Assembly: GCF_009712425.2 (NCBI RefSeq)
Contig: NZ_VCJR02000001.1
Coordinates: 62,001-126,000, forward strand
From: Aquisalinus luteolus
Lineage (GTDB): Bacteria; Pseudomonadota; Alphaproteobacteria; Caulobacterales; Parvularculaceae
DNA length: 64,000 nt
Reading direction: 5' to 3'
Positions 43,191 to 63,857 of this stretch are shown here, one piece after another (the stretch's first letter is position 1; every line of letters starts with the position of its first letter). The notes under the pieces were generated by a model. It was not told the DNA's origin. It searched no databases and saw only the letters and a program-made list of their open reading frames with translations. The translations under genes were made by a program, and so were the position numbers.

Positions 43191-43282
43191 TTTGAACACG
43201 CCTTGTGACCGAATTTCTCTCTCCCCGAGACCGCCATTCTGCATGACAGTGGATCGCACGTTACTCGATGAGGGAAAAGATA

Positions 43283-43969
43283 ATGACAAAGAGAGAGCAT
43301 TCGACCCGTCCAGTAGAGTTCGATTGTTGCGGTCGCCAAGGCACGATTTCCGGCATGTCGATCATGCCCATCATACCGGCTCAAGCGCCGCATCATCATA
43401 AGTTTGCCCTTCGCAAGTTACAAACTCCTATTGTGAATTGCGATAAGTTTCAAGCAGTTATTACCCATAACAATGAGTGTGCCTGGGTCTTCCACGAATT
43501 GCGCCCCGACGATTATTCAAGGGTGTCCTATTTCGGCTTCACGGTTTTTCTGCCCCTGACGAAGTCTGGTCTTGAGGCCTTGCTTGCCGATGATCTCGAT
43601 ATGACAGACCCACCGCTCTCTGCGATTGCCGGTCGCAACGAGCAGCCAGAGTGCCTGTACTGGTGGGTTACTGCCGTCGACAACAGCGTATTCAAAATTG
43701 TACCGCTGATCGTCAATGAGCTACTGGGGCAGCGCTACCGGCATCTCGATATCATCGCCAGAATCGGTAGCAAGGCGGGCGGCGCGTCGATGTCCCGTGT
43801 CGGATTTGAGCCGGTCGATCCGGCAAAAAGCGGCATCGGAAATCTGATCATCTATCGCCGCCTTTCGAACCGTTCTCTCGATCCCGCCCTCGTGGAGGGC
43901 CGGTGGTCCCCTAAAGCGACATTTCATCAAGCCCAGAAAACGATCCAAGGCAGGGAGAGAGCCGCATGA
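43283..43969 (+). CDS. GNAT-like protein, function unknown
   Basis: The 228-residue product has no standard annotation that I recognise. The middle part (FGFTVFLPLTKSGLEALLAD) and the stretch ECLYWWVTAVDNSVFKIVPL, followed by an Arg/Gly-rich IARIGSKAGGASMSRVGFEP, resemble an acyltransferase (GNAT) fold with a degenerate acyl-CoA loop. The last block mirrors the GNAT C-terminal Met/Arg-x-Gly-Phe element. The ATG at 43283 follows GAGGG. It overlaps the next GNAT gene by four bases (ATGA). A role as partner or acceptor-binding subunit is possible. Confidence 0.7.
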   Translation: MTKREHSTRPVEFDCCGRQGTISGMSIMPIIPAQAPHHHKFALRKLQTPIVNCDKFQAVITHNNECAWVFHELRPDDYSRVSYFGFTVFLPLTKSGLEALLADDLDMTDPPLSAIAGRNEQPECLYWWVTAVDNSVFKIVPLIVNELLGQRYRHLDIIARIGSKAGGASMSRVGFEPVDPAKSGIGNLIIYRRLSNRSLDPALVEGRWSPKATFHQAQKTIQGRERAA

Positions 43970-47989: not shown

Positions 47990-48352
47990 GTATTGATATA
48001 GATTCAAATCCCCTTTCTGCATTTTACCCTCTAGACTGGGTGAAATACTGAAGAAACGGCGCTCCACTTTTGGGGATGCTTTGTCCCGAAATGGTGCCTA
48101 CACCTTTGTTTTTCAAAATAAGGTCGCCATCCATCTGGTTGGCATCGCGCTACCTTTCAGGTTTTGGTCAACTAGTTGCCGGCTTGGTTTCCAGTGCTCT
48201 CCCAATTGAATTGAGCAGAGCACACTGTTTTAGGCATTCAGCGCCTTTTGCGAAAAGTCAGTGGTGCGTCACCGACGTATTGCACAAAGTTGCGCATGGG
48301 GATATAGCACGAGGGTCTCAGTGCAACCGGAAAGCCAAAAAGGATAACAATT
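47990..48352. promoter_or_regulatory. lacI-type gene leader with two operator-like sites
   Basis: This 363-bp intergenic stretch carries two copies of the locus motif. CAACTAGTTG, a perfect palindrome, lies at 48169-48178, and GCACAAAGTTGC lies at 48282-48293, about 60 bp before the LacI-family start. The second copy is followed by GCGCAT, as is the copy at the symporter promoter. Autoregulation of the repressor is therefore likely. An open frame at 48070-48363 has no coding character and is not called. Confidence 0.55.
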
Positions 48353-49381
48353 ATGGCGGATAAGAGGTCGCGATCAGGTGACATCACAATTTACGACATT
48401 GCCGAGCAGGTTGGGGTTTCCCCCTCAACCGTTTCGCGGGCGCTGGCAGGATCTTCACGTATCGGTGAGAAGACCAAGGCGAAAATCATCGAAGCCGCGC
48501 GAGCAGGTCAGTATAGTGGTATTGCTGGTACGGAGGGAGGCAAAAAGCTGCGCCGACTTGTTGAGGTTGTCTTTCCGCTCGCAGTCGCCGGTGAGCAGCG
48601 AATTACCGACCCGTTCTATCTGGATATGCTTGCTGTGGTCGCTGACGGGCTTGCCGAGCGCAACTTCAATCTGGTGCTAATCAATGAAACACCTTGGGCG
48701 CGGAGGGGGAATGTTGCCCATCTCCCCCACGTTGCAGGTATGATCATTATCGGTCACGCGCCTGACCAAGAAGCGCTTCAGCGGTTTGGGCGGGAAAATT
48801 CAAATCTCGTTGTCTGGGGCGCGAGGGTCGATGGTGACCATCATCTTACTGTTGGAAGTGACAATGTCGCCGGGGGCAGGCTTGCCACAGAACATTTGCT
48901 TTCGCTTGGCAGAAGGCGTGTCGCCTTTATAGGCGATCCTGCAGAGCCGGAAGTAACGCAGAGACAGGAGGGGTACTTGCAGGCCCTTAAGGAGTGGGGT
49001 GCTGGACAGCAACCGATATTGTTCAAGTCGCCCTTCAATGCCTATCGCGCGCGAATTGCTGCGCAGGCAGCGGTTGCCAGTTCGGCCGATTTCGATGCAA
49101 TTTTTTGCGGCAGCGATGTGATTGCTCTCAATGTCATTGATGCTTTGCGCTCTGTAGGGCGCCGAGTTCCGGAGGATGTTGCGGTTGTGGGTTATGACGA
49201 TATCAGCCTGGCTTCGGCCTACGGCCAGTCGCTTACCACTGTAAGTCAGCAAATACCCGTGGGCGGGCAATTGCTGGTGGATGTTTTCTGCAGCGCTCTT
49301 GCGGGAGAAAAGGTCGACAGCAAGGTTATTCCTCCCAAACTTCAAGTTCGCGAAAGCACGATTTCTCATAAGAAGAGCTAA
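48353..49381 (+). CDS. LacI-family transcriptional regulator of the polysaccharide locus
   Basis: The 342-residue repressor has the LacI helix-turn-helix ITIYDIAEQVGVSPSTVSRA (residues about 10-29), the hinge helix AKIIEAARAGQYSG, and a periplasmic-binding-protein-like sugar domain ending in VGYDDISLASAYGQSLTTVS. AAGGA precedes the ATG. It sits directly upstream of the TonB receptor and matches the role of LacI/GalR-type repressors of carbohydrate loci. Candidate operators are found upstream of this gene, of the receptor and of the symporter. Confidence 0.94.
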   Translation: MADKRSRSGDITIYDIAEQVGVSPSTVSRALAGSSRIGEKTKAKIIEAARAGQYSGIAGTEGGKKLRRLVEVVFPLAVAGEQRITDPFYLDMLAVVADGLAERNFNLVLINETPWARRGNVAHLPHVAGMIIIGHAPDQEALQRFGRENSNLVVWGARVDGDHHLTVGSDNVAGGRLATEHLLSLGRRRVAFIGDPAEPEVTQRQEGYLQALKEWGAGQQPILFKSPFNAYRARIAAQAAVASSADFDAIFCGSDVIALNVIDALRSVGRRVPEDVAVVGYDDISLASAYGQSLTTVSQQIPVGGQLLVDVFCSALAGEKVDSKVIPPKLQVRESTISHKKS

Positions 49382-49431
49382 GTGGGCGACTCTAGGCCGG
49401 GCTGGCGCGCCGTTATGAGCGCGCTCATTGT

Positions 49432-49550
49432 GCAACAGGTTTCGCGAGTTTGTTTGATTATCCTGCGATTCAAGCGGACTTTTTCAGAGAATTGTTGATG
49501 GCGTCTTGACGATCCAATAAATATTGTGCAACAAGTTGTCCATCATAAGG
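49432..49550. promoter_or_regulatory. Receptor promoter with operator-like sites
   Basis: GCAACAAGTTGT lies at 49528-49539, followed by CCATCATAAGG, which resembles the site and -10 region at 60987-61009 (GCAACAAGTTGC then GCATATAATGG). A degenerate copy, GCAACAGGTTTC, is at 49432-49443. The main site overlaps the probable promoter of the TonB receptor gene and would block RNA polymerase when bound by the LacI-family protein. Confidence 0.55.
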
Positions 49551-49575
49551 TGAAAAGCCGGTTTTGGAGGAAATA

Positions 49576-52287
49576 ATGTTGTATCGCTCGGGGAAAAGTT
49601 TTCTGTTGTCTTCTGTTGCACTGCTGGGTCTCTCGGCACAGGTTGCTGCCACTGCTCAAGAGGCTGCTGAGGGTGAGGAAAGAGATGACGATGTCATAGT
49701 GGTTTCGGGTATTCGGCAGAGTCTGGAGGATAGTGCTGAGGCGAAGCGCAACTCTGATAACGTGGCCGATTACATCAGTATTGATGATGTGGGTGATCTG
49801 CCGGCATTGAACATTGCCGATAACCTTGAATATCTCCCGGGTGCTGTTGGGCTGCGCTTTCGCGGCACTGTCGACCAGGTATATCTGCGCGGGCTGCCGC
49901 AGCTTCTTACGCTGACAAGCTTCAATGACCGGGAGGTGGCGTCCAGCAATGGAGTGCGTTTTGTTCGCTTCCAGAACTATCCAAGCTCGTTTTTCAAGCG
50001 TGTAGAGGTGAACAAGGCTCAGACCGCATCAATTGTCGAGGGTGGTGTAGCTGGGACGATAGTCCTTGAAACACCAAGCCCTTTAGATGACAGGCGTGAC
50101 GACCTTCAGATCAGTGCATCGTATAGGGCGGAGTATGCGCCGTATAATGACAATAATGACCTGATCGACAATTGGGGCGGGCAGGCAATTCTGAGCCTTC
50201 AGGACAAGGTCGATATTGGCAAAGGTGAACTGGGGTGGCTATTTACCTACGATTATCATGACAACAAGAGGGTTATTTCCGGGCTCAGTTCGAACCCGGT
50301 CTACGATCGCGCCACGTTTGATGGTCAGGACGGGATCATTCCTGCCGCTCTTCTCTTTCAGAACGATACTGAAAACTTCGTTCGAAATTCCCTGCTCGGC
50401 GTGGTCGAGTGGGAGCCAAGCGATTCCCTTCGTCTTAAGGGGGATCTGATTATCAGTCACATCGACGACCCTCAGGAGAGAACCTTCTTCCTTGTTGCGG
50501 GATTGATCAATCCTGCCAGGTATGTCGACCCGGTCTTTTCTGATGGTGGGCAGCTACTTTCGACCGGGCTGGACAATGTTGTCACTCAGTCTCGCCGGGA
50601 CAGTATCACGCAGGATGAGCTTTCTGTGCTGGCTGGCCTGAATATTCAGAAAGACATTGGTCGGTGGTCTCTGGAACTCGACGGCTCTTATTCACAGGTT
50701 GAGGGTGATCTGAGCCTGCGACGTGTTGCCATCCGTCAGGTAGGCATGGATACCACCCTTGAGGTCGGTGATGATGGGTGGACCATCGGGTCATTTGCCG
50801 GCGATCTATCGAATACCGGGCCGTGGCAGGGCGAGCAGCTCTACGGTAACAACGTGGACGAGTTCGATAGCGCTTGGTCGCTGAGCGCAAAGGCCGGCCG
50901 CGAGCTAAATACCGGTATCTTTACTAACTTTCAGTCTGGCATCCGTTACAGCAATCGTCGACTGGACTATTTCAGGGATGATGAAGACGACCGCTCACCG
51001 CGCGGCAATCCGGTGCCTGAAGAATTGTATGTTGATCCCTATATCAACTTTAATCCGGATCATGTACCGGGTGGTTTGACCGACCCGTTTGCAACTTTCG
51101 ATGCGGCTGCGGCATGGGATTATTTTGTCGGGCTGACGCCAACTGGCGAGTTCGTGTTTGATGCGGACGACAGTGATCTGCTGCAATACAATATCGACAA
51201 CGAGGAGAAGACCGTTTCCGGCTTCGCCGAATTATCCTGGGAGACAAAGTTGGGTCGTTTCCCGATCCGCGGGGTTGCCGGTGTGCGTGCCCTTCAGACG
51301 GACCTCACTGCCAAGGGCTTCTCGGGCGAGCTTATACTGACTGAGAATGGCTCGGGCGGTTTTGACCTGAGTGTCGGCGGGCTTGAGCCTGATGAAGTCA
51401 ATACATCCTATACGGATATATTACCGAGCATCAACGCCACCATGATGCTGACCAACGACCTTCTCGTAAAATTCGGAGCTGGCAGAGCGATAGCTCGACC
51501 GAATTTCAATGAACTTCGCCTGGCGCGTAATCTGAATGTCAGCAATGTCGATGGGGATGATATTTATACCGGGTCTGCCGGCAATCCCTATCTTGATCCC
51601 ATCACCTCAAATCAGTTGGATTTATCCCTTGAGTGGTATGGCGAGAACACGACGCTTACCGGAGGATACTACTACAAGGACATAGATGGCTTCATTCAGG
51701 ACGGTCTGGTGCAGGAGGAGATCTCCGGATACACGTTTGACTTGGATGCACCGAAAAACCTAGGGGCCGGCGAGTTCTCCGGCTTCGAGGTTACCGCCCG
51801 TCATAACTTCGTATATCTGCCGGCCCCATTCGACGGCCTTGGTTTTTATGTGGCTGCGACGAAGAACTACTTCGATGGGGACCTGGATCAGTATCCGGCT
51901 TTGACGGAAACTGACGCTCAAGGTGAATTCGTCTTCGACCCGGCCGATCGGGAGTACTCTGTAGACGGATTTGCGCCGACGACATTCAGCTCGATCCTCT
52001 ATTTCGAGTCTGGGCCGGCGTCGATCCGGGCCGGCTACAAGACTGCCGGTGAGATCGCCTCGGATATCGCCGGGCGCGGTTCGGTTGTTGCTCCACAGGT
52101 CCGAAGGGCAAAGGACATTCTGGATATCTCTGCAAGTTTTGATATCAACGAGAGGGTGAGCCTCGACTTCCAGGCATCGAACCTTACCTACAATGACGGC
52201 AGCGCTTACTATTTCTTCGAAGATTACTCGGTTCGAAACCAGCAAACGGGCCAAAACTTCTTTGTCGGTATTACATTCCAAAATTAG
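49576..52287 (+). CDS. TonB-dependent outer-membrane receptor
   Basis: This receptor of about 903 residues imports oligosaccharides across the outer membrane with TonB energy. A signal peptide (residues 1-27, ending ATAQ) is followed by a TonB box region DDVIVVSG and a plug with LPALNIADNLEYLPGAVGLR and a conserved VNKAQTASIVEGGVAGTIVL. The remainder is a long beta-barrel ending in an aromatic FFVGITFQN. GGAGG precedes ATG 49576. The family is the Caulobacter/Xanthomonas oligosaccharide type. It belongs to the galactan locus and is probably induced by the substrate. Confidence 0.95.
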   Translation: MLYRSGKSFLLSSVALLGLSAQVAATAQEAAEGEERDDDVIVVSGIRQSLEDSAEAKRNSDNVADYISIDDVGDLPALNIADNLEYLPGAVGLRFRGTVDQVYLRGLPQLLTLTSFNDREVASSNGVRFVRFQNYPSSFFKRVEVNKAQTASIVEGGVAGTIVLETPSPLDDRRDDLQISASYRAEYAPYNDNNDLIDNWGGQAILSLQDKVDIGKGELGWLFTYDYHDNKRVISGLSSNPVYDRATFDGQDGIIPAALLFQNDTENFVRNSLLGVVEWEPSDSLRLKGDLIISHIDDPQERTFFLVAGLINPARYVDPVFSDGGQLLSTGLDNVVTQSRRDSITQDELSVLAGLNIQKDIGRWSLELDGSYSQVEGDLSLRRVAIRQVGMDTTLEVGDDGWTIGSFAGDLSNTGPWQGEQLYGNNVDEFDSAWSLSAKAGRELNTGIFTNFQSGIRYSNRRLDYFRDDEDDRSPRGNPVPEELYVDPYINFNPDHVPGGLTDPFATFDAAAAWDYFVGLTPTGEFVFDADDSDLLQYNIDNEEKTVSGFAELSWETKLGRFPIRGVAGVRALQTDLTAKGFSGELILTENGSGGFDLSVGGLEPDEVNTSYTDILPSINATMMLTNDLLVKFGAGRAIARPNFNELRLARNLNVSNVDGDDIYTGSAGNPYLDPITSNQLDLSLEWYGENTTLTGGYYYKDIDGFIQDGLVQEEISGYTFDLDAPKNLGAGEFSGFEVTARHNFVYLPAPFDGLGFYVAATKNYFDGDLDQYPALTETDAQGEFVFDPADREYSVDGFAPTTFSSILYFESGPASIRAGYKTAGEIASDIAGRGSVVAPQVRRAKDILDISASFDINERVSLDFQASNLTYNDGSAYYFFEDYSVRNQQTGQNFFVGITFQN

Positions 52288-52300
52288 TAGTCGAGTCATT

Positions 52301-54115
52301 ATGCTCAAGGTGTCTTTAGATCCTTCCAGACGTGATCTCTTTGTTGCGGGTGCTGGCCTTGCTGCCGGTTCCGCAACCGGAGGTTTCGCATCACCCGAGC
52401 CTGTCATGATCCATGTCAGAAACGAGGGCGGCGGGTCGTTCCTGCCCTCTCTCACGAGAGAGCTTGAAGCGGTTCCGCTTGATCGACCGGTCGTCATCGA
52501 TTTCGAGCCAGGCGAATATGTCGTAGACGCAACTGGAACCTCGTCCCGATATCTTCACGTCAGCAATAATGATGATGGAGAGAAATCCATCGCTCTGCTG
52601 ATAGAGGGAAGGCGCAACTTACTCATCAAGGGAAACAACGCCTCATGGCGGATGAGCGGTCAGGTTGTGCCGCTTGTCATCTTGAATTCAGAGAATGTAA
52701 CTGTTGAGGATCTGACGATCTTCTGGGACCGGCCTTTCCATTGCGAAGGAGACGTAATTGATGTCGGCGAGTGGGGGTGTACGCTCTCCATTCCGCAGGA
52801 GTTCGACTACGAGGTGCGCGAAGGTAAATTTCATTTCCTCAATGAGGATACGCCCTCGAATATTGTCAAGAACATGCTCGAATATGATGCCGAGCGCCGA
52901 GAAACAAGATTTCAGGTCTGGGATAATTTCCTGAGAGGCTACAGCCCCTCAGGGGAAATGATATCGCGGCCATATCAAGTTACGGCCTTGAGTAGCCGTC
53001 GTGTGCGTTTTGAGATGGATTTCAAATCCACCCCTCTGCAGGGGAACCGCATGCTGATCATGCCTGCTTCACGCAATATACCAGCGATTGTAATTCAACA
53101 CAGCCGTAGTGTCTCTTTGAATAATACCTCCATATATTCGGCTGGTGCGATGGGTGTCATCGCGCAGGTCTCGCACGATCTTGATCTGCGAGGGCTGAAG
53201 ATAATTCCGCGTTCGGAAAAATATTATGTTTCGACGGGTGTCGACGCTACGCATTTTGTAAATTGCAGTGGGGCTATATCCTTCAAGGATTGCGAGTTTT
53301 CCAATCATATTGACGATGCTATCAACGTACATGGGATTTACTTGCGGATTGCAGATGTGCGCAGTGATGGCACTTTGCGCTTGGAGCACATGCATTTTCA
53401 GCAGCAGGGCGTGGACATGCTGCGGCCAGACGATATCATCTCTATCGATGACCAGTACTCACTAAATCCAAAGGAAATAGGGCAGGTCGCTTCTCTGGAA
53501 CGAATTGATGCGCGCTTCCTGGAGGTGAAGACCTATGGCCTGCAAGGTAACAAGGTTTCGGTTGGCGATGTCGTCAATAATCTCAGCCTTCAGCCTGATA
53601 TGAAGGTTAACCGTATCCGTACAGGGAGGAACCGGGCGCGCGGTATTCTCGTCAGTACGGCAGGGGACGCAGTCATCAAGAACAGCTATTTCCACACACC
53701 TGGGACTGCCATACGTATCTCTGGCGGCATCGATAAATGGTATGAGTCCGGCCCTGTGCGCCGGGTCAGCATGACGTCCAATCATTTTGATAACTGCAAG
53801 TACGGCGTATGGGGCAATGCGGTCGTCGATGCTGTTGCAGTCGATGCCTCCGAGAATAAAGACCGGTCACCTTATCATGGGCAACTGGAAATGCGTGACA
53901 ACACATTTTCGACCTTTGATGGCCTGTTGGCGGACCTTTACCGAGTCAAGGCTTTTTCCTTTGTCGGCAATATAGTCGAGAAGACAGATGCCTATCCAGC
54001 TTTCAGGGATGTGGAGCAGCCGATCCTTTCAAAGGACGTCGGTACGCAAAACCTAAGATCGAATACCGTTCGTGGCTTCGATCCCGGATACAAAGCGGCC
54101 TTGTCGAAAGTATAA
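52301..54115 (+). CDS. GH110-like alpha-1,3-galactosidase (beta-helix), Tat-type signal
   Basis: The protein of about 604 residues starts with a twin-arginine motif (SRRDLFVAGAGLAAG), so it is probably exported folded. The body is a right-handed parallel beta-helix with the GH110 blocks SAGAMGVIAQVSHDLDL, STGVDATHFVNCSGAI, FSNHIDDAINVHGIYLR and, later, INKWYESG-like SGGIDKWYESGPVRRVSM. Asp315, Asp338 and Asp339 are candidates for the catalytic acids. GH110 enzymes cut alpha-1,3-galactosyl bonds, and a marine member acts on carrageenan-type galactobiose. It lies 13 bp after the receptor and before a sulfatase. Confidence 0.85.
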   Translation: MLKVSLDPSRRDLFVAGAGLAAGSATGGFASPEPVMIHVRNEGGGSFLPSLTRELEAVPLDRPVVIDFEPGEYVVDATGTSSRYLHVSNNDDGEKSIALLIEGRRNLLIKGNNASWRMSGQVVPLVILNSENVTVEDLTIFWDRPFHCEGDVIDVGEWGCTLSIPQEFDYEVREGKFHFLNEDTPSNIVKNMLEYDAERRETRFQVWDNFLRGYSPSGEMISRPYQVTALSSRRVRFEMDFKSTPLQGNRMLIMPASRNIPAIVIQHSRSVSLNNTSIYSAGAMGVIAQVSHDLDLRGLKIIPRSEKYYVSTGVDATHFVNCSGAISFKDCEFSNHIDDAINVHGIYLRIADVRSDGTLRLEHMHFQQQGVDMLRPDDIISIDDQYSLNPKEIGQVASLERIDARFLEVKTYGLQGNKVSVGDVVNNLSLQPDMKVNRIRTGRNRARGILVSTAGDAVIKNSYFHTPGTAIRISGGIDKWYESGPVRRVSMTSNHFDNCKYGVWGNAVVDAVAVDASENKDRSPYHGQLEMRDNTFSTFDGLLADLYRVKAFSFVGNIVEKTDAYPAFRDVEQPILSKDVGTQNLRSNTVRGFDPGYKAALSKV

Positions 54116-54182
54116 GGCGTTTCAGAAAGGATGGCGGTTCGCCAAGCCTGCAAGAGAACTCAGTATAAAGGTTAGTGTTAGC

Positions 54183-55637
54183 ATGAAACTTTCAATACGA
54201 ATCCTGTCTCTTCTCAGCGCACTGTGTTTGTCGATCGCTGGTGCGAATGCATCGGATAAACCAAATATTCTATGGATATTTATCGAGGATACTTCACCCT
54301 GGATGCCTGTCTATGGCGACGACACTGTAGAGACGCCAGCCATTAGTGAAATGGCCTCGTCCGGCGTCGCCTTTACGAATGTTTTCTCTCCAAATCCCAT
54401 CTGCTCACCGACCAGGTCAGCCCTGATTACCGGTGGGCATCCGGCGGAAATCGACGTCAACAACCATCGTTCGTCGCGGGATGAGCGCGGGCGTGATGAT
54501 GTATTCCTGCCGGAAGAGTGGGCGACGTTGCCTGAGCTGATGCAGCGCGCAGGCTATGAAACGTTTAATATCGGCAAGGACGACTATAACTTTGTGTACG
54601 ATCGCAGAGATCTATACTCTCTCGGTCCGGATGGCGTTGAAGGCCATATAGGTGCGCTGGATGGGCCCGACTTTGACTGGCCCGAAGCCGTTGGCAGCAA
54701 GCCTTTTTTCGGCCAAATCCAGCTGGAAGGCGATAAGCACAAGGGGACGGCAAGGCGCACGATTTCCCCTGAGTCCGTTACGGTGCCGCCTTACTATCCA
54801 GAGACTGAAGAATTCAGGTCTCACATAGCCAGGCATTATGAGACCATCGAAATTACAGACGGCGAGGTGGGTGCGATACTTGAGAAACTCAAGAGTGCCG
54901 GGCTTGCTGACAATACGATCGTATTCGTGTTTGCCGACCACGGAATGCGAATGCTTCGTCACAAGCAATTCCTCTATGATGGCGGGGTCCATGTTCCGCT
55001 CGTCATATCCGGTGCTGTTGATAAAGAAAGGCTCTCGACCCTACGGACGCGTTCAAACGACCTCATCTCCCTTGTCGATGTCGCGGCAACGACACTGAGC
55101 ATGGCCGGCGGCAATATTCCCGAGTATTTTTACAGCGAGGACCTTTCGTCTGCCGACTATGTCGAGCGCGACCACCTTATCCTCGCCCGCGATCGTGCGG
55201 ACTACACTTTCGACTATATCAGGGGTGTGCGGACGGACCGTTTCAAGTATCTGAGGAACTATTATCCGGATCGGCCCTATCTACAGGCTCAGTACCGCGA
55301 TAACTGGCCAGCCATGAAAGAGTGGAAGGAAATGTTTGCGACCGGTGACCTGACCCGGGAGCAAGCCCTGTTCATGCAGCCTGTGCGGCCGATGGAAGAG
55401 TTGTACGACCTGCGAAATGATCCTCATGAAGTGCACAATCTGGCGGCTGACCCTGAGTATGCTGATGAACTAAAGCGGTTACGTAGTATACTGGATGCCT
55501 GGGCGGCTGCAGGCAAGGACAACTCCAGCGTGCCACCCGATACCGAAGAGGTTCAGTCAATCATCGATCGTTGGGGTGAGCGTTGTGTTTCACCAGAGTG
55601 CATATCCGTTAGAAAGATGAAGCAGGATCAGAATTAA
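54183..55637 (+). CDS. Secreted S1-family sulfatase, first of two
   Basis: The sulfatase of about 484 residues has a signal peptide (residues 1-23, ending GANA) and the N-terminal PNILWIFIEDTSPWMPVYG. The usual metal-binding Asp-Asp reads Glu-Asp. The formylglycine site is CSPTR in NPICSPTRSALITGG, where Cys is oxidised by a maturase not found in this window. A later FADHGMRMLRHKQFLYDGG supplies Asp/His ligands. It removes sulfate esters, probably from the galactan. I start at ATG 54183, after AAGG; a frame opening at 54072 overlaps the galactosidase. Confidence 0.93.
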   Translation: MKLSIRILSLLSALCLSIAGANASDKPNILWIFIEDTSPWMPVYGDDTVETPAISEMASSGVAFTNVFSPNPICSPTRSALITGGHPAEIDVNNHRSSRDERGRDDVFLPEEWATLPELMQRAGYETFNIGKDDYNFVYDRRDLYSLGPDGVEGHIGALDGPDFDWPEAVGSKPFFGQIQLEGDKHKGTARRTISPESVTVPPYYPETEEFRSHIARHYETIEITDGEVGAILEKLKSAGLADNTIVFVFADHGMRMLRHKQFLYDGGVHVPLVISGAVDKERLSTLRTRSNDLISLVDVAATTLSMAGGNIPEYFYSEDLSSADYVERDHLILARDRADYTFDYIRGVRTDRFKYLRNYYPDRPYLQAQYRDNWPAMKEWKEMFATGDLTREQALFMQPVRPMEELYDLRNDPHEVHNLAADPEYADELKRLRSILDAWAAAGKDNSSVPPDTEEVQSIIDRWGERCVSPECISVRKMKQDQN

Positions 55638-55736
55638 TTCTATTATCCGGCATGATGCGCGAGTTACTGAATTTCTATCAGCATGCAGAGGCGGGCTCAT
55701 AAGGCTTGGACAATAAATAAAAGGGATGGATAAAAT

Positions 55737-57329
55737 ATGACAAACGATTTAATTGGAAGCAGGAATAGATCCTTGATGGCGTCCGCTGCGGTTAGTGTGC
55801 TGCTATTGTCTGCTCAGCCTGCCGCAGCTATGCTCGAATCCGATTTTGATCCGTACAGAACCAGTTGCACGTACGATACGTCGAATGTGGTCACATACAA
55901 TATTGCTGATGATTTCGGAAGCGGTAACGTCAATCGCAGTGCAATCATCAGTGCAATCAATGCAGCCGAGGATTATTGGGACACGACCGATCCCGACGCC
56001 AATATAGTCCTCGAAATTGATGCTGGCACCTGGGATATAGCAGGCAGCCCCGCGATCCGGTTGATCGGCTTGAACAGCACACGCCAGAATGATGATGGTT
56101 GGCTGATCTTCAAAGGTCAGAGCATGGCTCTCACAACACTCAATTTTACGGATATAGAGGCGAGAGGGTTCTTTGGCAGAAATGCCTATCGCGTTCATTT
56201 CTGTAATTTTCATATTACCAGAGATCAGGAAACGGTATCGCAAGGGGAGATCGTCGGATACCTGCAAGGGGCTTCATGGTCAGCCGATCCGGATCCGGAT
56301 GTGTACGGTGATGAAACACTGGATAATCCCGGGACGTTTGATACGAGTGGAACAACTTCGGAATTTCCGGTGGTGGAACTGCATTCTGGTTTCCCAACCA
56401 TTGCAGACATTTACAATGATGACTTCGGCCAGGGGCGTTACACCAAGCGCTGGCGTTATAATGCCAATGGCGAGCCGTACCGTGTTCAGGATGACCAGCA
56501 AGCCCCGTGGGAGCAGTATGCCGATTACGGTAGCGGGCGCTGGGTTCTGGGTATGTATAATGATCCAGGTTATGAGATAGGCGATACGATTGCCATCAAG
56601 TCGAAGCTCGCCGGTGAGCCCTTTTTCTTCAATCAGGGCGATTCCATCACTGTAGAGAATATTCGAGTCACGCGCGCCAGCCGTATGTTGTTCCGCGGCG
56701 GAGTGGATAATATTACCTTCCGCAACGTGTCAATCGAGCGGCAAGCCAGTGTCGGAGGCCGGATACCATTTCTCTCTACCGCCGAAGGGGGGCCACAGAT
56801 GGGCCAGCCCGATGAAGGTCCTTTGACGAATATCGTGGTCGAAGACATGCAGGCGTTCGGTACCGGAGACGACCCTCTTGCTGCGTTCGATGTAACCGGC
56901 CTTTTTGTTACATCTTCGACTTTCAGCGATTCATTCGCTCGCGGTATCTTGCTGGATGACACATCGACCACTCCTTGTATAACAGATACATTGGTGGAGC
57001 GGGCACCCATAGCGCCAGAAAATCCCTCTTATGCCTGGGGGTGTCAAAGCGACAGCACGCCACCCTCTGCTGTAACCTTCCTGACAGCAAGTGCGGCAAC
57101 TGCCGGAGTTGATTTAAGCTGGACAGATACTCCGCCGATGGATTTTGACGGATATGTCATTACCCGAACCGAGGCGGGAGGCAGTCCGTACGAGATTGCC
57201 AATGGCGTGTCCGGAACATCCTATACGGATATTTCAGCAGAAGCAGGTGTTCAGTACACATATGAAATTGAAGCCTTTGATACATCCAGAAACCGCTCCT
57301 CCGCAGCGAGCGTAACGATAACTCCCTAA
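55737..57329 (+). CDS. Secreted beta-helix protein with C-terminal FN3 domain
   Basis: I cannot assign this 530-residue protein to a known enzyme family. A signal peptide (about residues 1-31, ending AAAM) precedes a beta-rich region with repeated turns such as ITVENIRVTRASRMLFRGGV and ITFRNVSIERQASVG, which is the pattern of a right-handed parallel beta-helix. A fibronectin type III domain (about residues 443-530: AGVDLSWTDTPPMDFDGYVI) ends the chain. Acidic and aromatic residues line the likely groove. Placed between two sulfatases, it may be a depolymerase for the same galactan. Confidence 0.8.
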   Translation: MTNDLIGSRNRSLMASAAVSVLLLSAQPAAAMLESDFDPYRTSCTYDTSNVVTYNIADDFGSGNVNRSAIISAINAAEDYWDTTDPDANIVLEIDAGTWDIAGSPAIRLIGLNSTRQNDDGWLIFKGQSMALTTLNFTDIEARGFFGRNAYRVHFCNFHITRDQETVSQGEIVGYLQGASWSADPDPDVYGDETLDNPGTFDTSGTTSEFPVVELHSGFPTIADIYNDDFGQGRYTKRWRYNANGEPYRVQDDQQAPWEQYADYGSGRWVLGMYNDPGYEIGDTIAIKSKLAGEPFFFNQGDSITVENIRVTRASRMLFRGGVDNITFRNVSIERQASVGGRIPFLSTAEGGPQMGQPDEGPLTNIVVEDMQAFGTGDDPLAAFDVTGLFVTSSTFSDSFARGILLDDTSTTPCITDTLVERAPIAPENPSYAWGCQSDSTPPSAVTFLTASAATAGVDLSWTDTPPMDFDGYVITRTEAGGSPYEIANGVSGTSYTDISAEAGVQYTYEIEAFDTSRNRSSAASVTITP

Positions 57330-57401
57330 CATTTTGCTGGATGCGGATGTCCGGGCTTGCTGGAAAGTCCCTAAAGTCAGAAGTCAGCGAGGATATGAAC
57401 T

Positions 57402-58832
57402 GTGATCACGGCTGTAAGAAATATTCTCCTGTCACTCATGGTTGCTTTTCCGATCCACGGGGCCACTGCGATGGAGAGTAATCCGTCCGGGCCAAATATA
57501 GTTCTTATCTTTGTCGATGATCTGGCGTGGGTCGATGTCGGCTTTCATGGGGGAGCTGTCCCAACCCCCAACATAGACCGTTTGCGCCATGCCGGAATAA
57601 GTTTCGAAAGGGCTTATGCCAATTCACCAACGTGCAGCCCCAGTCGCGCGGGCCTGATCACCGGGCGCCATCCGGCCGCCTTAGGTTTCTTTCGTCACAT
57701 AGGTTCCGGGGAGAATACCGGTATCGACAAGTTCGGGCGTACGGAACAATCGCATGCAATGCTTGAAGCGGACCCTGCACAGGCACCATCTCGCAATTGG
57801 CTTCCGCTAGAAGAGGTGACGCTGGCAGAGCGCCTCAAGGAGAGGGGCTATGCTACAGGCTTTGTCGGAAAGTGGCATCTGGGACATGAACCATACCATC
57901 CCGTAAATCAGGGCTTTGACGTGCAGTTCGGTGTCACCAATGCGGGGCATCCCAAATCCTATTACCCGCCTTACTTCTCCAACAGTGACGTGTACGCAGA
58001 TGCTGATAACGATTATTATCTTACAGATCGCATCGCTGATGATGCCGCAGCGTTGTTGAATGATTTTCTGAAAGGCGATGATACCCCCTTCTTCCTGTCT
58101 CTTTGGTTCTACGGTGTGCACACGCCTCTGGAGGGCAAGCAGGAGCGCGTCGAGTTTTATATCGATCAAGGAGTCGCCGAAGAAAGAGCAAACCTTCATG
58201 CGATGATAGAGTCCATGGATCAGGCGATCGGCAGGGTGATCGACATGATAGAAGAGGGTAATAAGCTGGATGACACCCTGATTATTTTTGCATCCGATCA
58301 GGGTGGCTTCCTTGAAACGCCCCCCTTACGTGGCCGCAAGGGGGGCGGTGAAGCGTTGTATGAGGGGGGCTCGAGAGTGCCTCTGGTATTTCATTACCCC
58401 AAACGAATTCCTGCGGGCATATCAAGGGTGCAGCCAGTATCTCTTATAGACATCGTTCCGACAGTCATGGACTTGGTTACAGGAGAGGTGCCCAAAGAGC
58501 TTCACGGTGAGAGCCTTGTGTCCTCGTTCATGAAGGTTCCTGACCAAGAAGGCGAAGTTATTCTGTATCGTCATTACGAGGACAAATTCGGTGCCTTGAT
58601 AACTCCTCGTTGGAAATTCATCGCCAGTCTAGCCGGGCAGAATGAGCTTTACGATCTCAGTTCCGATGCCGGAGAGGCGAACAATCTTATCAAGGATTAT
58701 CCTGAAATCGGGATGTGTATGGAGCGCAGGTTCCGCGAATGGGTCCAATCAAACGCTGCCTTCGATCCCTATCAACATGGCGCGCAGTCCGGCGAGCCGG
58801 GCAATGGAGGAAATGAGTGCATCAAAAACTGA
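57402..58832 (+). CDS. Secreted S1-family sulfatase, second of two
   Basis: The 476-residue enzyme has a signal peptide, PNIVLIFVDDLAWVDVGFHG with the normal Asp-Asp pair, the formylglycine motif CSPSR in NSPTCSPSRAGLITGRHPAA, and GFVGKWHLGHEPYHPVNQGF with the Lys/His substrate residues. FASDQGGFLETPPL gives the late metal ligands. It differs clearly from the first sulfatase, so the two probably remove sulfates at different positions. Translation starts at GTG 57402, preceded by GCGAGG. Its end overlaps the next gene by 16 bp. Confidence 0.94.
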   Translation: MITAVRNILLSLMVAFPIHGATAMESNPSGPNIVLIFVDDLAWVDVGFHGGAVPTPNIDRLRHAGISFERAYANSPTCSPSRAGLITGRHPAALGFFRHIGSGENTGIDKFGRTEQSHAMLEADPAQAPSRNWLPLEEVTLAERLKERGYATGFVGKWHLGHEPYHPVNQGFDVQFGVTNAGHPKSYYPPYFSNSDVYADADNDYYLTDRIADDAAALLNDFLKGDDTPFFLSLWFYGVHTPLEGKQERVEFYIDQGVAEERANLHAMIESMDQAIGRVIDMIEEGNKLDDTLIIFASDQGGFLETPPLRGRKGGGEALYEGGSRVPLVFHYPKRIPAGISRVQPVSLIDIVPTVMDLVTGEVPKELHGESLVSSFMKVPDQEGEVILYRHYEDKFGALITPRWKFIASLAGQNELYDLSSDAGEANNLIKDYPEIGMCMERRFREWVQSNAAFDPYQHGAQSGEPGNGGNECIKN

Positions 58833-60844
58833 ATACTGAAAACCGAGTGGAAATTCCTGCACGGCACGCAATGAAGTCTCTGCTTTGTCTTTCGCTCGGC
58901 CTTATGTTCGTTATAGCTGGCAGCTTCTCGACGGCTGCGGCTCAGGATGTAGCCTTCGATGCATACTTTTCCGATGGCATGGTTTTGCAAAGGGGCAAGG
59001 CCAACACGATTACCGGTGTAGCTCCCCCGGGAACTGATATTACAGTAACTTTGGCCGCCAAATCGCAAAGAACGCAAGCGTCAGAGTCGGGGCGTTGGCA
59101 GACAACCTTTCCGCCAATGGGGCCGGATGGTGTGCATACTTTGACGGTTCAGGCGGCGGATGCAGAAGGTGTCACGGTGCGCAATGTCGAGTTCGGTGAC
59201 GTCTGGCTCTGTTCAGGTCAATCCAACATGGTTTGGCCGGTACAGTCTTCTGCCACGCGGGACAAGGAATACAGCGCTGCAGAGGAAACGAATATCCGTA
59301 TAATGCAGATCGACCTTGACCCCCGTGGTTCGGAGTCATCCATCGTACCAGTTGGCAAACCCTGGAGCGTTCCCGACGAGCGGAGTCTCGCCAGTTTCTC
59401 GGCATCCTGTTGGGCATTCGGTAAATATCTGGATCAGAATGTCGATGGTCCCATCGGGTTGGTTCAGGCGGCGCTCGGAGCTACCAGGATTGAAGAGTGG
59501 TTAAGCGCGGATGCACTGAAGCGAGTTGGTGGCATGGATGAGGAGCTTTCGGTGCTTGCATCGTATTCGAGCGCTCCGGAGCAGGCGCTGAGGGCATTTA
59601 CGGAGAATGCCTTGAAGGGGGCGGCGGCCTACGATGAGGGACTGATCAATACCCATTGGTATGCGGAAGGGTTTGATGATACGCGATGGGAAAAGATCAA
59701 GCTACCCACAACCTGGATAGGCTCACCGCGCTCGGGTGCCCCAGCCAACGAGTATATCGGCGTAACGTGGTTTCGGCGCAGTTTCGACATGCCCGCCCTG
59801 AGCGATGACGCCAAGATTTATCTGGAATTGGGTTCCATCGACAAGCAAGGCGCTGTGTGGATTAATGGGGAGCTTGTTGGTAGTAGATATTCCGGAGCGG
59901 TGCCTTTCAGGGTGGAGGTTCCCGGTAATCTTTTGCGTGATGGGGCTAACCAAATTACCGTTCGTGTTGCTGATGATGCTGGACGGTCGGGCTTTCCAGG
60001 CGCCGGGCAGGCTTTCGGTATCGAAGTCGACGGGCAGCTTTCTAGCCTTGCAGGCTTCTGGCGTTATCGTATCGGGGCGGACCGGCGCGCTATGGGGGAA
60101 CTGGACAATCCCCCTTGGGCACCGCGCAGCGGAATACAGATACTTTGGAATGGCATGATCGCTCCGCTTACGGACAAGGGTATCAAGGGCGTTGCCTGGT
60201 ATCAGGGAGAGAGTAATTCTCGCTCGCCGGAAAGTTACAATAGTCTTCTCGCTGCGCTCGTCGATAGCTGGAGAGGCCGGTTTGATAGTCAGGACATGCC
60301 AGTCATCATCGCCCAATTGCCTGTTTATGGAGGCCTCGTTGACAGGTCCGGGGATAGTGGCTGGGCTGACATACGTGAAGCGCAGCGTCAGGTCTATCTG
60401 AACAGAGATAATGTTGGCCTTGCTGTGTTGCTTGATCTGGGAGTTCGCACGGAAATACATCCGGCTCATAAGGAGGAAGTTGGACTCAGGCTGGGGCGAG
60501 AAGCGCTGCGTATCGCATACGGGGGAGATATTCAGCCACCTGCCATGCCCGTTGGTGGGCAGCGCGACGGCGGTGCCCTGCTAATCCGGTTTGGTCCCGG
60601 GGAAAGGCAACTGCGGGCCATCGGTGGAAACGCGCTTATCGGATTCGAGACATGTAATGCGCAATGGCAGTGCCGCTATGCAAGGGCGGTCTTGCTGGGG
60701 GATGGAGCTACGGTGCGTGTGGCGGGCCTGCGTGAAGAGGATGTCTACCTGCGCTATGGATGGTCCGCCTCTCCCCTGACAAATCTTTATGAGGAAGAGG
60801 ACATACCTGTCTCGCCATTCCGCTTCGCCATGCCGGACGAGTAA
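58817..60844 (+). CDS. Sialate O-acetylesterase-like carbohydrate esterase
   Basis: The 675-residue protein belongs to the SASA group. The nucleophile Ser136 is in DVWLCSGQSNMVWPVQ, the catalytic His lies in RTEIHPAHKEEVGLRLG, and a jelly-roll insertion (about residues 300-395, YIGVTWFRRSFDMPALS) resembles a sugar-binding domain. A signal peptide follows a short N-terminal extension. GTG 58817 has GGAGG ahead and overlaps the sulfatase. Met 58871 would give a more typical signal start. It probably removes acetyl groups from sugars of the galactan. Confidence 0.88.
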   Translation: MHQKLNTENRVEIPARHAMKSLLCLSLGLMFVIAGSFSTAAAQDVAFDAYFSDGMVLQRGKANTITGVAPPGTDITVTLAAKSQRTQASESGRWQTTFPPMGPDGVHTLTVQAADAEGVTVRNVEFGDVWLCSGQSNMVWPVQSSATRDKEYSAAEETNIRIMQIDLDPRGSESSIVPVGKPWSVPDERSLASFSASCWAFGKYLDQNVDGPIGLVQAALGATRIEEWLSADALKRVGGMDEELSVLASYSSAPEQALRAFTENALKGAAAYDEGLINTHWYAEGFDDTRWEKIKLPTTWIGSPRSGAPANEYIGVTWFRRSFDMPALSDDAKIYLELGSIDKQGAVWINGELVGSRYSGAVPFRVEVPGNLLRDGANQITVRVADDAGRSGFPGAGQAFGIEVDGQLSSLAGFWRYRIGADRRAMGELDNPPWAPRSGIQILWNGMIAPLTDKGIKGVAWYQGESNSRSPESYNSLLAALVDSWRGRFDSQDMPVIIAQLPVYGGLVDRSGDSGWADIREAQRQVYLNRDNVGLAVLLDLGVRTEIHPAHKEEVGLRLGREALRIAYGGDIQPPAMPVGGQRDGGALLIRFGPGERQLRAIGGNALIGFETCNAQWQCRYARAVLLGDGATVRVAGLREEDVYLRYGWSASPLTNLYEEEDIPVSPFRFAMPDE

Positions 60845-60900
60845 GTCTGCTTTGAAGTCCAAGTCTATTCTTAAATCAATCTGCGCGACATTCAGACCGT

Positions 60901-61009
60901 GCAACAAGTTGTTCCATTCCCCTTTTTTGTATGATGCTGGAAAATAAACTTGAGATAGAATGGGCGTCGTGATAATTATCTGAAAGGCAACAAGTTGCGC
61001 ATATAATGG
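60901..61009. promoter_or_regulatory. Symporter promoter with two operator sites
   Basis: GCAACAAGTTGT at 60901-60912 and the perfect-armed GCAACAAGTTGC at 60987-60998 precede the symporter gene. A consensus TATAAT lies at 61002-61007, three bases after the second site, so a bound repressor would cover the space between -35 and -10. The two sites are about 86 bp apart (roughly eight helical turns), a distance that would allow looping. Confidence 0.6.
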
Positions 61010-61068
61010 TTTGATGACCTTTGGCGTACATGTTCCCTCAGGAATGTTTCCATGTTCCCACCTCCCTT

Positions 61069-61097
61069 CCTCGGGCTTCGGCCCGAGGACTCTTTTT
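61069..61097 (+). terminator. UUCG-loop terminator-like hairpin in the symporter leader
   Basis: CCTCGGGC and GCCCGAGG pair perfectly around a TTCG tetraloop at 61069-61088, followed by ACTCTTTTT. It has the form of an intrinsic terminator, but lies after the proposed promoter and 69 bp before the symporter start. It could therefore be a conditional attenuator or a terminator of the upstream operon. Confidence 0.8.
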
Positions 61098-61165
61098 GAG
61101 TGGTGCCGGCATCTCCTGAGGCAACCAGAAAATAAATGCCTGTTGAGTGCGACAGGGAGGCATAA

Positions 61166-62737
61166 ATGTATCTTGAAATCATCGATCTGGTGATCGTTGC
61201 CGGCTATGCGCTGGCGCTGATTGCGATGGCGACGCTGGTCTCCCGCGAGAAGGCGGGCCACGAGAAGAATACCGAGGACTACTTCCTCGCCGGCAAGGCG
61301 CTGCCCTGGTGGGCGATCGGTGCCTCCCTGATCGCGGCGAATATCTCTGCCGAGCAGATCATCGGCATGTCGGGCTCCGGCTTTGCCATCGGCATGGCCA
61401 TCGCCTCCTATGAATGGATGGCGGCGATCACGCTGATCATCGTGGGCAAGTTCTTCCTGCCGATCTTCCTCAAGCGCGGCATCTATACCATGCCGCAATT
61501 CCTGGAGAGCCGGTTCGGCTCATCGGTCAAATACGTCATGTCGGTGTTCTGGCTGGTCCTCTACACCGTCGTGAACCTGACCACCGTCTTGTGGCTTGGC
61601 GCAACGGCGATTAACACGCTGACCGGGCTCGAGATGTTCTACGGCATGCTGGCGCTTGCCGCCTTCGCGGCGGCTTACTCCATCTATGGCGGGCTGAAAG
61701 CCGTTGCCCTGACCGATATCATCCAGGTCGTGCTGTTGATCTTTGGCGGCGCGCTGATCACGTGGATCGTGCTCGGCGAGCTGGGCGGGGACGCAGGTGC
61801 CGTTGCCGGCTTCCAGACACTGATGGCCGAACTGCCTGAGCGCTTCGACATGATCATCGACCGCGAAACCCGGCCTGAGGACTTCCAGAACCTGCCGGGT
61901 ATCGGCGTGTTGATCGGCGGTATGTGGATCATGAACCTGTCCTACTGGGGCTTCAACCAGTACATCATCCAGCGTGCCCTTGGCGCCAAGGACATCAAGG
62001 AAGCCCAGCGTGGCGTCCTGTTCGCTGCCTTCCTGAAGCTGATCGTGCCGTTCATCGTCGTCGTGCCGGGTATTGCCGCCGTCATGCTGGCGCCGGATAT
62101 CGGCAAGCCGGACCAGGCCTATCCGACGATGATGACCTATGCCCCTGTCGGCATTCGCGGGCTGATCTTCGCGGCGCTGGTCGCGGCGATCGTCTCGTCC
62201 GTCGGCTCGATGATGAACTCGATCTCGACGATCTTCACCATGGACCTCTACAAGCCGCTGCTGGCGAAAGATGCACCGGAGAAGCGCCTCGTGATGATCG
62301 GGCGGATCGCGTCTTTCACCGCGCTCGTCATCGCCGTGTTCCTCGCCCAGCCGCTGCTCGGCGCGTCGGGCCAGGTGTTCCAGAACATCCAGAACTGGAC
62401 CGGCTTCGTGACGCCGGGCGTGTGCGCGATCTTCTTCCTCGGCATGTTCTGGAAGAGGGCAACGGAGATCGGCGGCCTTGCCGCCGTGATCGCATCGGGC
62501 GTCCTGTCCTTCGCCTGGCCGATGATGTTCCCCGACATGCCGTTCATGAACCGCGTCGGCTTTGTCTTCCTGTTGTGCCTTGGCCTCGGCATGCTGGTGT
62601 CCTACCTGCAGAAGCCGGATGGCGACGACAAGGTGGTCCGCCTCGGCGACATCTCGTTCAAGACCGGCCTCGGCTTCAATATCGGCGCGGTCATCGTCGT
62701 CATCGCGCTAGTCATCCTCTATGGCGTCTGGTGGTAG
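61166..62737 (+). CDS. Sodium:solute symporter (SSS/SGLT-like)
   Basis: The 523-residue carrier has about 13-14 membrane helices and the SSS family signatures EDYFLAGKALPWWAIGASLI, then GGLKAVALTDIIQVVLLIFG, and the sodium-site region AALVAAIVSSVGSMMNSIST. It resembles the SGLT-type transporters for galactose and related sugars. GGGAGG precedes the ATG. It is followed by galE, so it is probably the inner-membrane step for galactose uptake. Its GC-rich codons match the core genome better than its neighbours do. Confidence 0.94.
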   Translation: MYLEIIDLVIVAGYALALIAMATLVSREKAGHEKNTEDYFLAGKALPWWAIGASLIAANISAEQIIGMSGSGFAIGMAIASYEWMAAITLIIVGKFFLPIFLKRGIYTMPQFLESRFGSSVKYVMSVFWLVLYTVVNLTTVLWLGATAINTLTGLEMFYGMLALAAFAAAYSIYGGLKAVALTDIIQVVLLIFGGALITWIVLGELGGDAGAVAGFQTLMAELPERFDMIIDRETRPEDFQNLPGIGVLIGGMWIMNLSYWGFNQYIIQRALGAKDIKEAQRGVLFAAFLKLIVPFIVVVPGIAAVMLAPDIGKPDQAYPTMMTYAPVGIRGLIFAALVAAIVSSVGSMMNSISTIFTMDLYKPLLAKDAPEKRLVMIGRIASFTALVIAVFLAQPLLGASGQVFQNIQNWTGFVTPGVCAIFFLGMFWKRATEIGGLAAVIASGVLSFAWPMMFPDMPFMNRVGFVFLLCLGLGMLVSYLQKPDGDDKVVRLGDISFKTGLGFNIGAVIVVIALVILYGVWW

Positions 62738-62774
62738 ACGTGGGGATAAATCAGTACACAAATGCGGAGAAGTC

Positions 62775-63857
62775 ATGATGGCGGATAAGCAATCTTCCGG
62801 AGCACATATCCTGTTGACGGGGGGCGCGGGCTATATCGGCAGTCACGTGGCCGTTGTCCTGCTAGAGGCGGGTTATGACGTTACCATCCTCGACAATTTC
62901 GCCAACTCTTCTCCGGTTGCGGTTGAGCGCATTAGCGAAATCGCAGGACGCAAGCCGCATTTGATCAGGGCCGACCTAAGCGACCGGGACAGTATGGAAG
63001 CGATCGCAGCACAGATAATGGCCACTGGCCTTGATGGTGCCGTCCATCTGGCGGGGCTAAAGGCGGTTGGCGAATCGGTAGAGCAACCAGCCCGCTATTA
63101 TGACCAGAACATCAACTCAACGCTCAATTTGATTGAGATATTGAAGATCTGTCAGGCGCCTGTTGTAGTGTTTTCATCATCAGCGACCGTTTATGGGGAG
63201 CTAAACGACAGTCCGGTGGCAGAAAGTGCCCTGACGGGGCCGACCAACCCCTATGGCATGACCAAACTGTTCAACGAGCAAATACTGGCGGACCAGGCTC
63301 GGGCTGACGGAGCGTGGAAGGTGGTGAACCTCCGCTACTTCAATCCTGTCGGGGCGCACCCATCAGGCTGTATCGGAGAGGATCCGCTGGGGATTCCCAA
63401 CAATCTGTTTCCGTTTGTCGCTCAAGTTGCTGTCGGTCGCCGTAAGCTGCTAAAAATCTTTGGTGGGGACTATCCGACCGGAGACGGCACTGGCGTGCGT
63501 GATTATATTCACGTCATGGATCTTGCCGAGGGACATAGGATGGCCCTCGATCATGCGCTTTCACGCGAAGAAGGATTTGTTCAGGCGATCAATCTTGGCT
63601 CAGGGCGTGGCAATTCTGTCCTTGAGGTTGTGGACGCGTTTGGAGAGGCGGCCGGTTGCTCCATTCCATACGAGATTGCACCTCGGCGAAGTGGAGATGT
63701 TGCAGAAATTTATGCCGATGCAAGCCTGGCCTCAGACCTGCTTGGATGGCACCCCACTCGCGTCCTTGCCGATATGTGCCGGGACCACTGGGCTTGGCAG
63801 TCTCTCAATCCGCAGGGCTATGGCCCGGCTGGCGAAAACGGGGAGGCCTGCACATGA
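62775..63857 (+). CDS. galE: UDP-glucose 4-epimerase
   Basis: The enzyme of about 360 residues interconverts UDP-galactose and UDP-glucose. It has the NAD motif GGAGYIGSH, the catalytic Ser in VVFSSSATVYG and NPYGMTK with Tyr/Lys, VVNLRYFNPVGAHPSG, and DYIHVMDLAEGH. The ATG at 62775 has GCGGAGAAG ahead. It begins 38 bp after the symporter and overlaps galT by four bases (ATGA), giving a symporter-galE-galT unit. Its codon use is closer to the polysaccharide locus than to the symporter. Confidence 0.95.
   Translation: MMADKQSSGAHILLTGGAGYIGSHVAVVLLEAGYDVTILDNFANSSPVAVERISEIAGRKPHLIRADLSDRDSMEAIAAQIMATGLDGAVHLAGLKAVGESVEQPARYYDQNINSTLNLIEILKICQAPVVVFSSSATVYGELNDSPVAESALTGPTNPYGMTKLFNEQILADQARADGAWKVVNLRYFNPVGAHPSGCIGEDPLGIPNNLFPFVAQVAVGRRKLLKIFGGDYPTGDGTGVRDYIHVMDLAEGHRMALDHALSREEGFVQAINLGSGRGNSVLEVVDAFGEAAGCSIPYEIAPRRSGDVAEIYADASLASDLLGWHPTRVLADMCRDHWAWQSLNPQGYGPAGENGEACT

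What the first reader, a model, noticed from the sequence alone, without database searches (positions are those of the whole stretch)
48169..61007. Shared operator motif GCAACAAGTTGC at three promoters of the polysaccharide locus
A 12-bp near-palindrome with arms GCAAC and GTTGC occurs at 60987-60998 (exact) and, with one to three changes, at 60901-60912, 49528-49539, 49432-49443, 48169-48178 and 48282-48293. All copies lie in the leaders of the LacI gene, the TonB receptor and the symporter. At the symporter the site is followed three bases later by TATAAT, and the receptor site shares the flanking CAT-ATAA pattern. This predicts one repressor (the LacI-family protein) controlling itself, receptor and uptake as a unit.
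Basis: partly seen in the sequence, partly recalled or inferred. Interest (0 to 1): 0.7.

Follow-up and report, generated by a model that had tools for sequence, protein, structure and literature searches.

The report
Sugar repressor sites lacking central CG
A marine bacterium's seaweed-galactan genes carry one repeated switch sequence at their promoters, very probably bound by the neighbouring LacI-type repressor, which has lost the part that normally reads a central CG, and the switch sequence has lost that CG too.

Summary
Six copies of GCAACAAGTTGC (0-2 changes) lie as three pairs in the leaders of the LacI gene, the TonB receptor and the symporter-galETK operon; 0 of 3000 shuffles of the leaders equal this. 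In the 3.68-Mb genome 16 places match with at most one change: three are these leaders, the other 13 lie in coding ORFs. The exact copy fills the spacer of a CTGAAA-16-TATAAT promoter before the symporter. The neighbouring LacI is very probably the binder: its relatives have intergenic sites with the same outer half-site GCAA...TTGC, and a 58%-identical one in Parvularcula dongshanensis has them at a galactan/gal locus. Only operator positions assigned to the hinge changed. In a wider set, intact-hinge loci have CG centres in 19 of 26 sites, hinge-less loci in 0 of 6. This resembles E. coli CytR. Autoregulation rests on weaker sites; binding is untested. New variant of a known kind.

The parts
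48168..48179 (+). weak operator copy TCAACTAGTTGC, distal site in LacI leader (185 bp before ATG)
   Evidence: 2 changes from GCAACAAGTTGC
48282..48293 (+). weak operator copy GCACAAAGTTGC, proximal site in LacI leader; shares AGTTGCGCAT with the 60987 site
48353..49381 (+). LacI-family regulator, 342 aa; intact helix-turn-helix and sugar-binding domain, degenerate hinge (SGIAGTEGGKKLRR)
   Evidence: Pfam PF00356, PF13377; alignments
49432..49443 (+). operator copy GCAACAGGTTTC, distal site in receptor leader
   Evidence: part of 15-nt direct repeat
49528..49539 (+). operator copy GCAACAAGTTGT, proximal site in receptor leader, about 48 bp before ATG 49576
49576..52287 (+). TonB-dependent receptor (TonB-Xanth-Caul type), first gene of the target operon
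52193..60844 (+). GH110, sulfatase, FN3-bearing protein without Pfam match, sulfatase, SASA-type esterase with GH2-like domain: degradation genes downstream of the receptor
60901..60912 (+). operator copy GCAACAAGTTGT, distal site in symporter leader
60980..61007 (+). promoter-like CTGAAA-16-TATAAT before the symporter
   Evidence: 10 of 12 matches
60987..60998 (+). exact operator GCAACAAGTTGC inside the promoter spacer
61166..63857 (+). sodium:solute symporter and galE, start of operon that continues beyond the window with galT, galK and a formylglycine-generating enzyme

Best explanation
The six sites are operators of the LacI-family protein encoded at 48353-49381. It represses two operons that take up and break down a sulfated galactan (receptor to esterase; symporter-galETK-sulfatase maturase) and probably its own gene. 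Without inducer a dimer sits on GCAACAAGTTGC, in the -35/-10 spacer at the symporter and just before the start at the receptor, and blocks RNA polymerase; a galactose-type sugar releases it. The helix-turn-helix reads the outer half-site GCAA/TTGC, kept from its relatives. The hinge helix that in most LacI-family proteins kinks DNA at a central CG has eroded, and the operator centre has drifted from TCGA to CAAG. Paired sites 86, 96 and 114 bp apart, near whole helical turns, hint at cooperative or looped binding. Shown: sites, clustering, positions, hinge loss, shared half-site with relatives. Inferred: binding, repression, effector, looping.
For: Leader enrichment, 0 of 3000 shuffles; all other genome matches lie in ORFs; operator in a promoter spacer; relatives with intact hinge have intergenic GCAA-N4-TTGC sites, 26 seen against 0.65 expected; 58%-identical LacI at a galactan/gal locus of P. 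dongshanensis with such sites; hinge Ala and Leu replaced in this protein; hinge-less loci 0 of 6 CG centres against 19 of 26; only positions -2 and -1, assigned to the hinge in Camas 2010, changed; AlphaFold shows a hinge helix in the relative and none here, both at low confidence.
Against: No binding data. No second genome with the same degenerate hinge and locus was found. LacI-leader copies are weak. Arabinose-type LacI with intact hinge has CG-less sites at its own leader. A terminator-like hairpin lies between the symporter promoter and its ATG, so the promoter may not simply feed the symporter. The hinge/centre test ignores relatedness.
Confidence: 0.7

Rival explanations
1. The sites belong to one of the two close LacI paralogues in this genome (C1:18412 or C1:1805859), not to the neighbouring LacI, which may be decaying.
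For: The paralogues share the outer half-site GCAA/TTGC and have an intact hinge.
Against: Their own sites mostly have TCGA/TCGG/CCGT centres, and no site here has CG. The neighbouring LacI is an intact 342-aa ORF with conserved helix-turn-helix and sugar domain.
Confidence: 0.1
2. The sites are bound by the neighbouring LacI, but the loss of the central CG is drift without a link to the hinge loss.
For: Arabinose-type LacI with intact hinge also has CG-less sites at its own leader; the sample of hinge-less lineages is small.
Against: Hinge status and centre covary across loci, and the three best copies here share the same CAAG centre, which suggests constraint.
Confidence: 0.2
3. The sites are operators of an unrelated regulator such as a GntR- or LysR-type protein.
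For: The motif is a short palindrome that other families could bind; a LysR gene lies at 42180-43289.
Against: Same half-site as the intergenic sites beside relatives of this LacI in other genomes; the sites flank the LacI gene.
Confidence: 0.07
4. Chance repeats.
For: GCAAYNNRTTGC occurs 13 times in the genome, mostly in ORFs; the motif was picked from this locus.
Against: 0 of 3000 shuffles; three of six genome copies of GCAACNNGTTGY in one 13-kb locus, all in leaders.
Confidence: 0.02

Closest known systems
CytR of Escherichia coli (LacI family)
   Same: Linker lacks the hinge Ala and Leu (QPMGRNV); described half-sites include GTGCAAC and GTTGCATT with a 2-bp or longer spacer (PMC3454398), close to GTGCAAC-AA-GTTGT here.
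   Different: 25% identical; controls nucleoside genes together with CRP; no CRP sites in these leaders; site spacing varies widely in CytR, constant here.
LacI regulator of the Parvularcula dongshanensis galactan/gal locus (L063)
   Same: 58% identical, same outer half-site, target genes of the same kind including a 76%-identical symporter, galT and galK.
   Different: Intact hinge; two of its three sites (GCAATCGATTGA, GCAATCGGATGG) have central CG.
EbgR-like LacI regulators (LacR, GalR, RafR of Lactobacillus plantarum)
   Same: Lack the hinge Ala/Leu and the central CG together (PMC2329647).
   Different: Insertion before helix 3 and a single central C or G, so odd sites; here no insertion and even sites.
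Even, non-CG LacI-family motifs in RegPrecise
   Same: 78 of 1251 even motifs have a different or degenerate central pair (PMC4052901).
   Different: The text consulted does not link them to hinge loss or to this lineage.

Membership tests
LacI/GalR family protein | LacI helix-turn-helix (PF00356) and periplasmic-binding-protein-like sensor domain | tested here: met
LacI/GalR family protein | hinge helix with conserved Ala and Leu | tested here: not met
   Thr60 and Gly63 in the Ala and Leu columns
LacI/GalR family protein | even palindromic operator near the start codon | tested here: met
LacI/GalR family protein | central CG in even operators | tested here: not met
   0 of 6 sites
CytR | orthology to enterobacterial CytR | tested here: not met
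   25% identity; full-length NCBIfam CytR model far below cut-off (118 against 436 bits)
CytR | flanking CRP sites | tested here: not met
   no TGTGA-N6-TCACA match with up to 2 changes in the leaders
CytR | unstructured linker | tested here: inconclusive
   no helix predicted, but pLDDT below 50 here and in the canonical relative
EbgR-like LacI regulators | insertion before helix 3 and odd operator with a single central C or G | tested here: not met
   helix-turn-helix aligns to canonical relatives without gaps; operator is even
LacI-family repressor of this regulon | binds the sites and is released by a sugar | not testable with these tools
   needs gel shift, footprint or reporter assay

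The most novel reading that the evidence does not exclude
Hinge erosion is a recurrent evolutionary route in these alphaproteobacteria: duplicated LacI repressors that share one outer half-site become insulated from each other when one loses its hinge and its operators lose the CG, so that the helix-turn-helix alone carries specificity. The window's regulator would be one such step, with two canonical relatives still in the same genome.
Probability: 0.35. Interest if true: 0.6.

Novelty: new variant of a known kind. Interest (0 to 1): 0.45.

Why it matters
It defines a regulon for a probable sulfated-galactan (lambda-carrageenan-like) locus in a bacterium outside the model genera. It is also a natural test of the LacI recognition code: half-site positions assigned to the helix-turn-helix are kept, while the two positions assigned to the hinge change in a protein that has lost its hinge. 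The repressor and canonical relatives with the same half-site coexist in one genome, so matched swaps would show directly what the hinge contributes to specificity.

Tried and rejected
Searching for an orthologue with the same degenerate hinge in family, order and class samples and in genome contigs found none; the best is P. dongshanensis with an intact hinge. The same-genus genome G010 has the arabinose-type LacI but no closer match, so footprinting against a near-identical locus was not possible. Compensating frameshifts as origin of the hinge were looked at by DNA alignment: indels with a net loss of 3 bases fit, but no single shifted frame convincingly restores the canonical motif. A CRP partnership as in CytR: no sites in the leaders. 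Rfam: no known leader RNA family. GCAAYNNRTTGC genome-wide gives 13 places, about what chance would give, so counts alone say little without position. Papers on LacI regulons in Parvularcula: none found.

Full report
Observation. They form three pairs, one in each of three leaders: 48168 and 48282 before the LacI gene, 49432 and 49528 before the TonB receptor, 60901 and 60987 before the symporter. Shuffling the three leaders while keeping dinucleotides gave a mean of 0.061 matches with at most two changes against six seen, and no shuffle of 3000 reached six. A blind repeat search recovers the pairs at the receptor (15-nt repeat ATTGTGCAACARGTT) and at the symporter. In the whole 3.68-Mb genome 16 places match with at most one change. 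Three are these leaders; the other 13 all lie inside ORFs. GCAACNNGTTGY has six places, three of them here. The motif was chosen from this locus, so the fair figure is the chance of two further copies given one, about 6e-5. The two LacI-leader copies carry two changes each and are the least secure.

Surroundings. Behind the receptor lie a GH110 enzyme (closest solved structure 7jw4, a GH110, E 6e-74), two sulfatases, a protein without a Pfam match and an esterase-like protein. GH110 genes in marine loci are linked to lambda-carrageenan (PMC7939477). The symporter is followed by galE, galT, galK and a formylglycine-generating enzyme, the kind of enzyme that matures sulfatases. From about 38 to 62 kb the G+C is 0.49-0.57 against 0.58-0.65 before it, so the locus looks acquired. 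The symporter leader holds CTGAAA-16-TATAAT at 60980-61007, a 10 of 12 promoter match, with the exact operator in its spacer.

Which protein binds. The genome has eight LacI-family genes. The window's LacI groups with full support with a paralogue at C1:18412 (55%) and a P. dongshanensis LacI (58%), and next with the arabinose-type LacI at C1:1805859 (47%). The P. dongshanensis locus encodes GH53, a LacZ-type GH2, a 76%-identical symporter, galT and galK, so it too is a galactan/galactose locus. Intergenic sites near these relatives have the same outer half-site GCAA/TTGC, most with the middle TCGA, TCGG or CCGT. The exact GCAATCGATTGC occurs at only two places in this genome, both intergenic, one of them just after the C1:18412 LacI gene. 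This shared half-site is the main evidence that the neighbouring LacI binds the window's sites.

What is different. The window's middle four bases are CAAG three times, then CAGG, CTAG and AAAG; none has CG. For LacI-family sites in general, 1251 of 1303 regulators have even palindromes and 1173 of these have a central CG (PMC4052901). Camas 2010 (PMC2978694) links half-site position -6 to residue 20, -5 and -4 to residues 15 and 16 of the helix-turn-helix, -2 to hinge residue 55, and the central CG to hinge residues 51 and 54. The window's operator keeps -6 to -3 and changes -2 and -1. The protein keeps VSxSTVSRAL and has lost the hinge: relatives read Y-x-V-N-x-x-A-R-x-L-R, this protein reads Y-S-G-I-A-G-T-E-G-G-K-K-L, with the Ala and Leu columns now Thr60 and Gly63. 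AlphaFold gives helix 60-64 in the relative and no helix there in this protein, both at low confidence.

Is that a pattern? LacI relatives with intact and with degenerate hinges were collected from the family and order, and exact intergenic GCAA-N4-TTGC sites around them were counted. Intact-hinge loci: 26 sites where about 0.65 are expected, with centres CG 19, CA/TG 4, AA/TT 2, CC/GG 1. Degenerate-hinge loci (separate lineages, mostly Y-x-F-R-P-x-M-P-A): 5 sites where 0.24 are expected, with centres AT 2, AA/TT 2, AG/CT 1. With the window's exact site this is 0 of 6 against 19 of 26 with CG (Fisher p 0.002). The test ignores relatedness, and sites are assigned to the local LacI by position only. 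A counterexample stands: the arabinose-type LacI with intact hinge has a CG-less site (GCAA-TTTC-TTGC or variants) by its own start in four genomes. The covariation is a strong tendency, not a law. It agrees with Francke 2008 for EbgR-like regulators (PMC2329647) and with CytR, whose linker is described as unstructured and whose half-sites include GTGCAAC and GTTGCATT (PMC3454398; linker sequence checked).

Mechanism. Most likely a LacI dimer sits on the sites and blocks RNA polymerase until a galactose-type sugar binds. Pair spacings of 86, 96 and 114 bp are 8.2, 9.1 and 10.9 helical turns, which would suit looping or cooperative binding; three values that near whole turns have a chance of roughly 5%, so this is a hint only. 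Binding, repression, effector and looping are inferred, not shown. A terminator-like hairpin between the symporter promoter and its ATG leaves open whether there is a second layer of control.

Verdict. The new part is the matched loss of hinge and central CG in a galactan regulator: a new variant of a known kind.

Noticed in passing
61061-61158: The symporter leader between promoter and ATG holds a terminator-like hairpin (61068-61089, then CTCTTTTT), and CCTCCCT (61061-61067) can pair with the ribosome-binding AGGGAGG; fold z-score -2.2, no Rfam match. Possible attenuation.
   Followed up: partly
L017 16690-18928 (G000:C1 about 138689-140927): A second, 77%-identical copy of the galE tail, galT and galK, with galE truncated, about 13 kb downstream of the first.
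   Followed up: partly
38001-62000: G+C drops from about 0.61 to 0.49-0.57 over the locus and its left flank, which suggests an acquired island.
   Followed up: no
L131-L140 (LacI genes of the hinge-less lineages): Two other LacI lineages in the order have lost the canonical hinge motif (Y-x-F-R-P-x-M-P-A and Y-R-L-T-x-x-x-W-E-W), so hinge loss recurs.
   Followed up: partly
L062 15799, L064 311, L065 16525, L067 11996: Arabinose-type LacI genes with intact hinge carry a conserved CG-less site GCAA-TTTC-TTGC (or variants) by their own start in four genomes.
   Followed up: partly
55737-57329: 530-aa secreted-type protein in the locus with no Pfam or NCBIfam match except a C-terminal FN3-like stretch in PDB search; possibly a new galactan-active enzyme.
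   Followed up: no
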